A stretch of DNA of 64,000 nt, from NCBI RefSeq assembly GCF_007164525.1, contig NZ_AP019791.1, positions 1,413,501 through 1,477,500 on the forward strand. Reading direction: 5' to 3'. Source of the DNA: Rubrobacter xylanophilus (GTDB taxonomy: Bacteria > Actinomycetota > Rubrobacteria > Rubrobacterales > Rubrobacteraceae). Of this stretch, positions 2,230-47,078 are shown in pieces; within the stretch, counting starts at the first letter, position 1, and each line of letters begins with the position of its first letter. The position numbers were made by a program, and so were the translations under genes. The notes beneath the pieces are model-generated. The model was given only the letters and a program-made list of their open reading frames with translations. It had not been told where the DNA came from and did no database searches.

Positions 2230-4731
2230 CTACTCGGCCTTCACGACCTCCTTCGGCTGGGTGACCCTGATCGTCACGATCGACTCGTCCTCGCCGATCT
2301 CGTCGGCGCTCTTGTCGTTCGCCTCGATGGTCACCTTGGAGCCGTCCGGGATCTCCCCGCGGAGGATCATCTCGCTCATCGGGTCCTCCACCATCCGCTG
2401 CAGTACCCGCTTGAGCGGCCGGGCTCCAAAGGCCGGGTCGTACCCCTCCTCGGCCAGCTTGTCCAGCGCCTCGGGCGTGAACTCCAGGGTCACGTTCCGC
2501 TCGGCCAGCTGCTCGCGCAGCCGCTTGACCTGGATCTCGATGATCTGCCGGACGTGCTCCCGCTCCAGCTTGTGGAAGACGATGATCTCGTCGATCCGGT
2601 TCAGGAGCTCCGGCCGGAAGATCTTCCTCAGCTCGCTGGTGACCCGGCTCTTCATCTCCTTGTAGGAGAGGCCCTCCTCACCGGCGCCGAAGCCGAGCGT
2701 CTTGGTCTTGTTGATGTGCTGGGCCCCCACGTTGGAGGTCATGATGAGAACCACGTTCTTGAAGTCCACCGTCCGGCCCTGGGCGTCGGTGAGCTGGCCA
2801 TCCTCCAGGATCTGCAGCAGGATGTTGAAGACGTCCGGGTGGGCCTTCTCGATCTCGTCGAAGAGCACCACCGAGTACGGACGCCGCCGCACCTGCTCGG
2901 TGAGCTGGCCGCCCTCGTCGTAGCCCACGTAACCCGGAGGCGAGCCGACCAGCCGCGACACCGTGTGCCGCTCCATGTACTCGGACATGTCCAGCCGGAT
3001 CATCGCGTCCTGATCGCCGAAGAGGTACTCGGCGAGGGTGCGGGCGAGCTCGGTCTTGCCCACGCCGGTGGGCCCGAGGAAGACGAACGAACCGCTCGGA
3101 CGGTTCGGATCCTTCAGGCCCGCCATCGTGCGGCGGATGGAGCGGCTGACGGCCTTTATGGCCTCGTCCTGCCCAACCACCCGGCCGTGCAGCGCCTCCT
3201 CCATCTTCAGCAGGCGCGCCGACTCCTCCTCGGTCAGCTTCCTGACCGGGATGCCGGTCCACATGGAGACGATCTCGGCGATCTCGTTCTCGCCGATGGA
3301 GACCCGCCGCTGCTCCTCGCCCTTGCCCTCGCGCCACTGGCGCTCCAGCTCGCGCTTGCGCAGGGCCAGCTTCTTCTCGGAGTCGCGCAGCCGGGCCGCC
3401 TCCTCGTACTCCTGGCTGTCGATCGCGGCCTCCTTCCGGCGCCGGATCTCGGCCAGCTCGTCGTCGATCTCCTTGTAGTACGGCGGCTGGGACATGGTCT
3501 TGATCTTCATCTTGGACGCCGCCTCGTCCACCAGGTCTATGGCCTTGTCCGGCAGGAAGCGGTCCGAGATGTAGCGGTCGCCGAGCCGCGAGGCCGCCCG
3601 GAGCGCCTCGTCGGTGATCTCGATCTTGTGGTGCTCCTCGTAGCGCTCCCTGAGGCCCTTGAGGATCAGCTCGGTCTCCTCGACCGACGGCTCCCCGACC
3701 TGGATGGTCTGGAAGCGGCGCTCGAGCGCCTTGTCCTTCTCCACGTACTTCCGGTACTCGTCGATGGTGGTCGCACCGATGACCTGGATCTCACCGCGCG
3801 CCAGCGCCGGCTTGAGGATGGAGGCGGCGTCGATGGCGCCCTCGGCGGCCCCCGCACCGACGAGGTTGTGGATCTCGTCGATGAACAGGATGATGTCGCC
3901 GTGGTCGATGATCTCCTTCATGATCTTCTTGAGGCGCTCCTCGAACTCGCCCCGGTACTTGGAGCCGGCGACCAGCGCCCCCAGATCGAGCGTGTAGACC
4001 TCCTTGTCCGCCAGGATCTCGGGCACCCGGCCCGCGGCGATCTCGTTCGCCAGCCCCTCGACGATGGCGGTCTTGCCGACCCCCGGCTCGCCGATGATGA
4101 CGGGGTTGTTCTTGGTCCGCCGCACGAGGATCTGCATGATCCTCTCTATCTCCTGCGTGCGGCCGATGACCGGGTCGAGCTTGCCCTCCTCGGCCAGCGC
4201 CGTGAGGTTGCGCCCGTACTGGTCGAGCTGGCGGGTCTTGGGCCGCTTGCCCTCGACCCCCCGCCCGGCGGCCTCGGCCCGCCCGCGCTGCGCCCGGCCG
4301 CCCCCGAGCCGCCGCACGACCTCGCGACGCACCTTGTCCGGGTCGACGTCGAGGTTGCTGAGCACCCGCGCCGCAACCCCCTCGCTCTCACGCACCAGCC
4401 CGAGCAGGATGTGCTCGGTGCCGATGTAGTTGTGGCCGAGCTGCAGCGCCTCCCTCAAGGCCAGCTCCAGAACCTTCTTGGAGCGCGGGGTGAACGGGGC
4501 CTGGCTGCCCGAGCCCTCCTCGCCGTAGCCGACGATGCTCTCCACCTGCTCGCGCACGTCGTCGAGCGTGACGCCGAGGTGGTTGAGCGCCTGGGCCGCC
4601 ACCCCGTCCTCCTCGCGCAGCAGACCGAGCAAAAGGTGCTCGGTGCCGATGTAGTTGTGGTTGAAGTGTCGGGCCTCTTCCTGCGCAAGGACGACGACCT
4701 TGCGGGCCCTCTCCGTGAATCTCTCAAACAT
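2230..4731 (-). CDS. clpC: ATP-dependent Clp protease ATPase subunit ClpC
   Basis: 833 residues, typical of ClpC. Two N-terminal Clp_N repeats (about 1-145) bind adaptors. AAA+ module 1 has Walker A near 214-221 (GEPGVGKT) and Walker B in [14 protein letters not shown]-like middle segment contains [18 protein letters not shown]+ module 2 has [11 protein letters not shown] and ends in the Clp C-terminal domain. The hexamer unfolds substrates for ClpP. A strong GGAGGAGG site lies about 8 nt before the ATG. No ctsR or mcsAB genes lie next to it, and no CtsR box was recognised. It is a single-gene unit ended by its own terminator. Confidence 0.97.
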
Positions 4732-45135: not shown

Positions 45136-46323
45136 TCACCCTCCCTCTTCCCCTCCTGCCTGCGGCTGATCCGAGAAGAAACCCTCAACTGTATACCACA
45201 GCTTCTCCCACAGCGAGGCCTCCTCGTAGCCCCGTGCCGCGACCAGCGGGGCGCTCCCCGCCCGCTCCCCGTCGACCCACACGACGATCCTCCCGAGCCG
45301 GTCCCCGCGCCGGGCGGCGCCGGGGAGCTCGTCGTCGACCTCCACCTCGCGCCGCACTTCGGAGCCGGGTCCAAGGAGCCCCTCCACGGACTCCCCGGCC
45401 ACGAGCGGCACCCGCTCGCCCCGCCGGTAGGGCACCTCCACGCTGGCGTAGCGCTCGCCGCGGCGGACGAGCTCCCGGCGGTCGTAGGCCGAGAAGCCGT
45501 ATTCGAGCAACTCCACCGAGGCGGCGAAGCGGTCCGCGCGGGCGTCGAGGACGACGGCCACGTACGACTCGTCACCCGACGCGGCCGAGGCGACGAGGCA
45601 GGGGCCGGCCTCCGGGGTGGTCCCGGTCTTTATCCCGGTGGCGGGCGGGTAGGTGAAGAGGAGCTCGTTGGTGTTGGCGAGGGGTATCTCGCGGTCTTGG
45701 GTCGAGATCACAGCGTACTCCGTCGCGACGATCTCCCGGAAGAGCGGGTACTGCATGGCCGCCCGGGACATCACCACGAGGTCCCGGGCGCTGGAGCGGT
45801 GCCCCCCATCGTCGAGCCCCACGGGGTTCCGGAAGCGGGTGTCCTCGAGCCCGAGCCGGCGGGCCACCCGGTTCATCTCTTCGACGAAGCGCTCCACGCT
45901 GCCTTCGCCGAGCGCCTCGGCGAGCGCGTAAGCCGCGTCGTCCCCGGAGGAGATGAGGGAGGCCATCAGCAGCTCCCGGACGCTCAGCACGTCTCCCGCC
46001 CGCAGCCCCACGTTGCTGTAGGGAGGGGCCGCGTAGGCGGCCGCCTCCGGCGAGACGACCACCTCCCGGTCGAGGTCGCCCTCCCGCAGGGCGACGAGGG
46101 CCAGCATGATCTTGGTCGTCGAGGCCATCGGGAGCCGCTCCCCGGCGTCGTGGGCGGCGAGCACTTCTCCGCTGCGCAGGTCCGCGAGCGCCCAGGCCTC
46201 GGCCCTCACTCCGGAGGGCTGAGCCCACGCCGCCGGCGCCGCCCAGAGCTGAGAGAGGAGCGGCGTGACGGCCGCGACGAGCGCGACGAGCAGGTGTTTC
46301 GGCAGCCAGGCTCTCTGAAGCAC
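45136..46323 (-). CDS. dacA: D-alanyl-D-alanine carboxypeptidase (PBP5 family)
   Basis: 395 residues. The signal peptide (about 1-34) ends in APAAWA. The S11 motifs are SxxK in MASTTK, SGD in LISSGDDAAY (where most have SGN) and KTG in GIKTGTT. A beta-rich C-terminal domain (about 285-385) follows. It trims the terminal D-Ala of stem peptides. The GTG start lies 9 nt after a perfect TATAAT, so the mRNA is probably leaderless. Confidence 0.94.
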   Translation of the reverse strand: MLQRAWLPKHLLVALVAAVTPLLSQLWAAPAAWAQPSGVRAEAWALADLRSGEVLAAHDAGERLPMASTTKIMLALVALREGDLDREVVVSPEAAAYAAPPYSNVGLRAGDVLSVRELLMASLISSGDDAAYALAEALGEGSVERFVEEMNRVARRLGLEDTRFRNPVGLDDGGHRSSARDLVVMSRAAMQYPLFREIVATEYAVISTQDREIPLANTNELLFTYPPATGIKTGTTPEAGPCLVASAASGDESYVAVVLDARADRFAASVELLEYGFSAYDRRELVRRGERYASVEVPYRRGERVPLVAGESVEGLLGPGSEVRREVEVDDELPGAARRGDRLGRIVVWVDGERAGSAPLVAARGYEEASLWEKLWYTVEGFFSDQPQAGGEEGG

Positions 46324-46332
46324 CGGGCACGG

Positions 46333-46375
46333 ATTATACCGGCGGAGCGACGGGTCGCCGCCCCGCCGGTATAAT
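46333..46375. promoter_or_regulatory. divergent pair of -10 elements in an inverted repeat
   Basis: TATAAT lies on the minus strand at 46333-46338 (for dacA) and on the plus strand at 46370-46375 (for the leader ORF). Both sit in mirrored GATTATACCGGCGG / CCGCCGGTATAATC blocks. Neither has a -35 box, and each start codon follows within 10 nt. Confidence 0.65.
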
Positions 46376-46385
46376 CGGCCGCGTC

Positions 46386-46421
46386 ATGCGGCCGGACGAG
46401 ATCTCACAGAACCACCGATGA
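46386..46421 (+). CDS. 11-codon leader ORF upstream of the TlpA-like gene
   Basis: ATG at 46386 lies 10 nt after TATAAT and encodes MRPDEISQNHR. Its TGA overlaps the ATG of the next gene (ATGA). The next gene has no Shine-Dalgarno, so it is probably translated by re-initiation after this peptide. No database family is expected for so short a peptide. Confidence 0.5.
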   Translation: MRPDEISQNHR

Positions 46422-46942
46422 GGCGGCTGGTGGCGGTGCTGCTGGTGGTCGCCCTCGCGGCCGTCCTCTACCGGACCTTCGGGAGCGCGGAGACCGGCAC
46501 CGGCACCCTCACCCTCCCGGAACCTGCCCCGACGGAGGGCGAGCGGGCTCCCACCTTCGAGGTGCACAGCGAGGAAGGCGGAACCTTCCGGCTGACGGAG
46601 AAGGGGATCTACGTCCTCACCTTCTGGAGCACCCTGAACCGGGGGTCGATGGAGGCCCGCCCGGCCTTCGAGGCGGTGGCCCGCCGCTACGGCGGCGAGG
46701 GCGTCAGGTTCGCCGCCGTCTACGTGAACAGCGCCCCCGATGACAGCAGCATCGCCTACACGGTGCTGCAGGACAGGACCGGAAGGCTCACCTCCCTGTA
46801 CAACGTCAAGCGGGTGCCCCGGCTGTTCGTCATCGAGAACGGCACCATCAGGCTGGTCCAGAACGGTTACTACGAGGGGAACCGCCGGCAGCTGGAGCAG
46901 GTGCTGGAAGAGTCGCTGCGCCGGGAGGAGAACCGCGGTTGA
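46418..46942 (+). CDS. membrane-anchored TlpA-like protein without redox cysteines
   Basis: 174 residues. An N-terminal signal anchor (about 3-20) is followed by a thioredoxin-like fold: FEVHSEEGGTFRLTEKG matches the AhpC/TlpA entry, IYVLTFWSTLNRGSMEARP the active-site region, and VPRLFVIENGTI the cis-Pro strand. The WCxxC of TlpA is replaced by STLNRGS and the protein has no Cys, so it cannot be a thiol oxidoreductase. It may be a binding or chaperone-like relative. Confidence 0.8.
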   Translation: MRRLVAVLLVVALAAVLYRTFGSAETGTGTLTLPEPAPTEGERAPTFEVHSEEGGTFRLTEKGIYVLTFWSTLNRGSMEARPAFEAVARRYGGEGVRFAAVYVNSAPDDSSIAYTVLQDRTGRLTSLYNVKRVPRLFVIENGTIRLVQNGYYEGNRRQLEQVLEESLRREENRG

Positions 46943-46979: not shown

Positions 46980-47078
46980 ATGAGCCGGGAGAAAGCAGTG
47001 CAGGCGCTGGGCGTGCTGGTGGCCGTGGGGACGGTTCTGGTCGCCGTCTTCGGGCTGGCGCACCTGATCGGCGCCTAG
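46980..47078 (+). CDS. 32-residue single-helix membrane protein
   Basis: From ATG 46980 the frame gives a short basic/polar start (MSREKAVQAL), one hydrophobic helix and a stop. TAAACT lies 11 nt upstream, with no Shine-Dalgarno. It might be a small membrane protein. Length alone cannot prove it. Confidence 0.4.
   Translation: MSREKAVQALGVLVAVGTVLVAVFGLAHLIGA

What the first reader, a model, noticed from the sequence alone, without database searches (positions are those of the whole stretch)
46333..46942. Mirrored -10 boxes, 11-codon leader ORF and a cysteine-less TlpA-like protein
Two TATAAT hexamers face outward inside an inverted repeat with no -35 boxes. The rightward one drives an ORF of 11 codons that begins about 4 nt into the mRNA and whose TGA overlaps the ATG of the TlpA-like gene, which has no Shine-Dalgarno. 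That protein has lost both redox Cys. This suggests leaderless entry followed by re-initiation, with a redox-dead thioredoxin fold co-regulated with dacA.
Basis: partly seen in the sequence, partly recalled or inferred. Interest (0 to 1): 0.55.

Follow-up and report, generated by a model that had tools for sequence, protein, structure and literature searches.

The report
Conserved tiny ORF before tlpA-like gene
In Rubrobacter and its relatives, a gene for a membrane-bound thioredoxin-like protein that has lost its active cysteines is preceded by a tiny open reading frame which starts almost at the first base of the mRNA and ends exactly on the gene's start codon; its position, but not its peptide, is kept across nearly the whole family, so it most likely exists to hand ribosomes to the gene.

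Summary
Window 46386-46421 is an 11-codon ORF 10 nt after TATAAT; its TGA overlaps the ATG (46418) of a Cys-less TlpA/ResA-like gene. Across Rubrobacteraceae, 34 of 39 genomes carry the protein. Of 33 with a readable start, 29 have a 9-14-codon ORF ending in the same NTGA overlap, and all 28 with a visible -10 start 7-11 nt after it. Peptides are not conserved. Length differs by multiples of three over at least 7 changes on the tree. The four loci without the overlap have stronger Shine-Dalgarno matches (one-sided p=0.007). The uORF persists where dacA is lost. Best reading: a leaderless, translationally coupled mini-ORF, the kind described in mycobacteria (PMC4633059), here kept through a family. 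Corrections: a -35-like GCGACG exists; the inverted repeat is best read as two back-to-back promoters; co-regulation with dacA is not general. The redox motif is N-x-x-S, with no Cys in aligned relatives. New member of a known kind; no transcript or ribosome data were available.

The parts
46347..46352 (+). -35-like element GCGACG, 17 nt before the -10
   Evidence: GAC at the same spacing in 16 of 27 family promoters
46370..46375 (+). -10 element TATAAT of the uORF-tlpA promoter
46383..46383 (+). likely transcription start (G, 3 nt before the uORF start); inferred
   Evidence: G at this place in 27 of 28 loci; -10 to start distance of 4-9 nt in Streptomyces lividans (PMC8079986, passages)
46386..46421 (+). 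leader ORF (uORF), 11 codons MRPDEISQNHR, TGA stop
   Evidence: equivalent in 29 of 33 family loci
46418..46421 (+). ATGA stop/start overlap
46418..46942 (+). tlpA-like gene: membrane-anchored thioredoxin-fold protein, 174 aa, no Cys; N74/S77 at the CxxC places
46980..47078 (+). 32-aa one-helix miniprotein MSREKAVQALGVLVAVGTVLVAVFGLAHLIGA, conserved after tlpA
   Evidence: a similar ORF in 31 of 32 readable loci
46333..46338 (-). -10 element of the divergent dacA promoter
45136..46323 (-). dacA (peptidase S11, D-Ala-D-Ala carboxypeptidase); GTG start 9 nt after its -10, so itself nearly leaderless
46332..46376 (.). imperfect palindrome formed by the two back-to-back promoters
   Evidence: also in the sister species (L003)

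Best explanation
A sigma-A-type promoter starts an mRNA about three bases before an RTG codon. Ribosomes load on this near-leaderless start, translate 9-14 codons of no fixed sequence, terminate at a TGA that shares two bases with the tlpA start codon, and re-initiate there without a Shine-Dalgarno sequence. The uORF is a ribosome-delivery device, not a functional peptide. Shown here: the anatomy, its family-wide conservation, lack of peptide conservation, frame-keeping length changes, stronger Shine-Dalgarno matches where the overlap is missing. Inferred: transcription start, translation of the uORF, re-initiation. The product is a membrane-anchored, redox-inactive thioredoxin-fold protein whose own function I cannot assign; it most likely binds a partner rather than exchanging thiols.
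For: 29 of 33 loci have the uORF ending exactly at +1 of tlpA, 28 of 33 RTGs lying 7-11 nt after a -10-like hexamer couple to tlpA, against 6 of 31 other RTGs nearby (several of the six nested in the same ORF). Gap -10 to RTG is 9 nt (19), 10 nt (6) or 7 nt (2) in 27 loci; G at -3 in 27 of 28. uORF lengths 9, 10, 11, 12, 14 codons need at least 7 changes on the tlpA tree, all multiples of three. Codon differences between close pairs are 17 synonymous, 47 not and look alike in all three frames (13/41, 10/44, 6/42): the peptide drifts. Arg at tlpA codon 2, where CGN would destroy the TGA, is AGR in 10 of 10 uORF loci against 19 of 39 Arg codons at codon 2 of Shine-Dalgarno genes of this genome (p=0.0024). 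The four loci without the overlap rank 1, 5, 7, 10 of 33 in Shine-Dalgarno strength (one-sided p=0.007). Nearly leaderless starts are common in this genome: TATAAT-N7-12-RTG occurs 47 times against 11 for the reversed pattern; 17 of the 30 fetched open long ORFs directly.
Against: No transcript ends or ribosome data. Species are related, so counts are not independent. Some uORF loci (G016, G022, G023) also have strong GGAGG before tlpA (-9.5 to -10.0), so coupling cannot be the only route there. AGR at codon 2 is also found in the three exceptions with Arg there. In the 30 fetched TATAAT loci only 2 of 13 short ORFs have the NTGA overlap, so it is not the rule in this genome.
Confidence: 0.75

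Rival explanations
1. The uORF is a sensing leader peptide (attenuator or stalling peptide) that regulates tlpA in response to an amino acid or stress.
For: Leaderless leader peptides of 12-18 aa are known in Streptomyces (PMC8079986, passages). Arg or Cys at codon 2 is common (codon 2 is CGT/CGC/TGT/TGC in 21 of 29).
Against: Peptide not conserved; no consistent residue run (list); the 5' mRNA is less structured than shuffles (mean z +1.4 over 29 loci), so no conserved attenuator hairpin; the uORF stop lies on the start codon, with no room for a terminator.
Confidence: 0.1
2. By-product: RTG happens to lie near the transcription start and tlpA is initiated independently; the TGA comes only from the Lys/Arg second codon of a membrane anchor.
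For: All 33 loci, also the four without the overlap, have A after the start codon, from Lys or AGR Arg. Translation of near-leaderless RTGs would be expected anyway.
Against: Frame kept through at least 7 length changes; no in-frame stop in 29 of 33; no Shine-Dalgarno in the window; stronger Shine-Dalgarno where the overlap is missing.
Confidence: 0.12
3. The inverted repeat with mirrored -10 boxes is an operator that co-regulates dacA and tlpA.
For: Perfect 14-nt arms in the window, and the repeat is also found in the sister species.
Against: The repeat search was made in these two only; spacing between the arms differs (3 against 8 nt); the arms contain just the two promoters; in other genera the boxes are 43 to 79 nt apart (read by eye) or the dacA-side box was not found (10 of 26 have it); tlpA keeps its unit where dacA is gone.
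Confidence: 0.08

Closest known systems
Leaderless 'coupled' small ORFs of mycobacteria (Shell et al. 2015, PMC4633059; passages read)
   Same: RTG at the 5' end of the mRNA, 5-50 codons, RTGA overlap with the downstream gene, architecture kept while peptide sequence is not
   Different: Here in Rubrobacteraceae, at one locus followed through 11 genera, with a different gene and with an apparent exchange for Shine-Dalgarno initiation; no ribosome profiling
uPPE2-PPE2 AUGA termination-reinitiation in M. tuberculosis (PMC11260477; passages read)
   Same: Out-of-frame uORF, AUGA overlap, no Shine-Dalgarno on the downstream gene; reporter mutants showed dependence on uORF translation
   Different: That uORF has its own Shine-Dalgarno and lies behind a B12 riboswitch; here entry is nearly leaderless, and the likely leader is 3 nt long (Rfam was not searched)
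ResA / TlpA / CcmG (DsbE) thiol-disulfide oxidoreductases (3gl3, ResA 1st9)
   Same: Predicted fold (target TM 0.74-0.81), N-terminal membrane anchor, kept cis-Pro place P134
   Different: CxxC replaced by N-x-x-S/T; no Cys at those places in the 20 aligned members

Membership tests
Leaderless coupled small ORF (PMC4633059) | RTG at or within about 3 nt of the mRNA 5' end | tested here: inconclusive
   Promoter geometry fits in the 27 loci selected by it and G at -3 in 27 of 28; no 5'-end data
Leaderless coupled small ORF (PMC4633059) | short ORF of 5-50 codons directly before an annotated gene | tested here: met
   11 codons in window; 9-14 in 29 loci
Leaderless coupled small ORF (PMC4633059) | RTGA stop/start tetramer | tested here: met
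   ATGA in window; NTGA in 29 of 33 loci
Leaderless coupled small ORF (PMC4633059) | linkage kept, peptide not | tested here: met
Leaderless coupled small ORF (PMC4633059) | ribosome occupancy | not testable with these tools
   no ribosome profiling; search 'Rubrobacter' + 'ribosome profiling' listed one unrelated paper
TlpA/ResA thiol-disulfide oxidoreductase | CxxC active site | tested here: not met
   N74 (19 of 20) and S/T77 (18 of 20) in its place
TlpA/ResA thiol-disulfide oxidoreductase | thioredoxin fold with cis-Pro | tested here: met
   AlphaFold model pLDDT 84.9, Foldseek to 3gl3, ResA; P134 in 20 of 20
TlpA/ResA thiol-disulfide oxidoreductase | ResA curated family score | tested here: not met
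   NF002854 34.4 bits against cut-off 170; Pfam AhpC-TSA 33.6 against 26 is met
Attenuator leader peptide | conserved codon run and terminator or anti-terminator hairpin | tested here: not met

The most novel reading that the evidence does not exclude
Promoter-borne ribosome delivery and Shine-Dalgarno initiation are interchangeable states at one gene: for as long as the family has existed a peptide-free 'ribosome ramp' (promoter, 3-nt leader, mini-ORF, NTGA) has been the normal start site of tlpA, and it was exchanged for a Shine-Dalgarno, with or without a remote promoter, in three lineages.
Probability: 0.5. Interest if true: 0.6.

Novelty: new member of a known kind. Interest (0 to 1): 0.42.

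Why it matters
Coupled leaderless mini-ORFs were described in mycobacteria from ribosome profiling; whether they are selected or are noise is hard to decide from two species. Here one such element can be followed through 11 genera of another actinobacterial family with frame kept, peptide drifting, and apparent replacement by a Shine-Dalgarno. That makes their role as a start-site device testable by comparison and by simple reporters, and warns that gene-start annotation misses such elements.

Tried and rejected
Inverted repeat as operator: perfect repeats of this length occur at 14 places in 464 kb of this genome, so alone it says little. Peptide-level selection: rejected. Conserved mRNA hairpin: rejected (mean z +1.4). 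Arg-codon argument: the first comparison (codon 2 against codon 3, p=1.7e-8) was too generous, because codon 2 of other genes is also AGR-rich (19 of 39); the weaker p=0.0024 is reported. deoC as a second conserved case: its uORF (14 codons, ATGA) is in G000 and a uORF with the same overlap is in 7 of 20 relatives fetched (20 of the 37 genomes matched, G000 being one of the 37); those without it mostly show Shine-Dalgarno-like sequence (by eye), so it is only partly conserved. Genome sample: 6 of 16 short RTG ORFs after a -10 couple to a long ORF against 636 of 7650 elsewhere (p=0.0013), but one of the six is the window's own and one is counted twice; not re-tested without them. Relatives outside the family: in 296 phylum genomes all 24 hits at E<=1e-12 were in the same family. 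Literature: 'Rubrobacter'+'leaderless', +'transcription start site', +'ribosome profiling', +'TlpA' listed nothing that, by title and abstract, treats this locus; only listings were seen for these. Further listings without a paper read: (of, PMC8079986 was then read in passages).

Full report
What was checked. The window is G000:C1:1413501-1477500 of a complete 3.02-Mb genome. Its same-genus relative G014 has 3,225,748 bases, the size I recall for Rubrobacter xylanophilus DSM 9941; loci named are Rubrobacteraceae, among them R. taiwanensis and R. marinus.

The protein. The 174-aa product matches AhpC-TSA and, as a profile, DsbE/ResA structures. The model (pLDDT 84.9) has an N-terminal helix 2-21 and a thioredoxin fold closest to 3gl3 and ResA. 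In the alignment to 3gl3 the CGPC lines up with N-x-x-S. Of 20 aligned members, 19 have N and 1 D at the first Cys place, S/T in 18 at the second, P134 and R135 in all. Of the 30 proteins translated only one holds a Cys at all, in its membrane helix. The loss is old and fixed, not decay. At E<=1e-12 the profile finds it only in this family (24 of 296 phylum genomes, all in the family).

The leader ORF. The protein was found in 34 of 39 family genomes. One (G026) is cut before its start; two second hits (G004 contig 15, G029 contig 629) were not used. In the remaining 33, 29 have an ORF of 9-14 codons ending in TGA at +1 of the tlpA start (lengths). For one of these (G016) the promoter lies off the contig. 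G011 and G012 also have ORFs that end there, but far from any -10, and I count them as lacking the element. G009 keeps the spacing (35 nt) but has an earlier TAG. G010 and G011 have their nearest TATAAT 100 and 147 nt upstream. Starts are GTG 18, ATG 11; stops all TGA.

Why selection. (i) The 3n+2 spacing is kept through at least seven length changes on the tlpA tree (only 9 of 26 inner branches well supported). (ii) Peptide differences look neutral in all frames, and GC by codon position (0.56, 0.67, 0.62) lacks the high third-position GC of tlpA (0.86). (iii) Arg at codon 2 always uses AGR in uORF loci (10 of 10 against 19 of 39). (iv) The four loci without the overlap have stronger Shine-Dalgarno matches (medians -6.7 against -3.2 kcal/mol). 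Against: three uORF loci also have strong Shine-Dalgarno sequences, and four exceptions in three genera are few.

The promoter. Columns aligned on the uORF start show the -10, G at -3 (27 of 28), RTG, then a pyrimidine-G-pyrimidine tendency, and little inside. With a -10 to start distance of 4-9 nt, as in S. lividans (PMC8079986, passages), transcription would begin at that G. The GAC-type -35 at 17 nt is seen in 16 of 27. dacA on the other strand starts 8-12 nt after a -10 in 10 of 26 genomes (the 7 loci with dacA absent, reduced, or off the contig were left out). The palindrome in the window and its sister is the sum of two such promoters.

Neighbours. The order groES-trxA-pfkB-dacA / tlpA-pyrF-hup is widely kept. 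In G018, G030, G034, G035, G036 no dacA match was found and in G022 only a C-terminal piece; all six keep the uORF. Directly after tlpA, 31 of 32 readable loci encode a 30-37-aa hydrophobic miniprotein; in genera g1 and g7 a TAAACT precedes its ATG, elsewhere often a Shine-Dalgarno (by eye).

How common is it here. TATAAT-N7-12-RTG occurs 47 times, control 11; of 30 loci read, 17 open ORFs of at least 163 codons and 13 short ones, two of the 13 being NTGA-coupled (tlpA, deoC).

Known or new. Shell et al. 2015 (PMC4633059, passages) describe 'coupled' leaderless small ORFs with RTGA in mycobacteria and note that the linkage, not the peptide, is kept. A 2024 paper (PMC11260477, passages) shows termination-reinitiation at an AUGA overlap in M. 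tuberculosis with reporters. A 2025 review (PMC12548453, passages) names ribosome delivery by short ORFs as a proposed function. This locus is therefore a new member of a known kind, with unusually deep conservation.

Noticed in passing
46980-47078 (+), and the same place in L003-L036: Unannotated 30-37-aa single-helix miniprotein, consensus like MSRExxVQxxGVVVAxATVxVTVxAxxHLF, after tlpA in 31 of 32 readable family loci; no NCBIfam match.
   Followed up: partly
L070 (own genome, 785.5 kb): deoC has a 14-codon uORF 7 nt after TATAAT with ATGA overlap; a like uORF is present in 7 of 20 relatives fetched.
   Followed up: partly
46389-46391 and equivalents: The second uORF codon is CGT/CGC/TGT/TGC in 21 of 29 loci although the rest of the peptide drifts; may be a promoter or leaderless-initiation signal. 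The window itself has CGG.
   Followed up: no
L058-L087: Many long ORFs in this genome start 7-10 nt after TATAAT without a leader (for example in L059, L075, L076, L078).
   Followed up: partly
L090 (G022) 3721-3855: Only the C-terminal piece of dacA remains next to pfkB; five other genomes have no dacA match there.
   Followed up: partly
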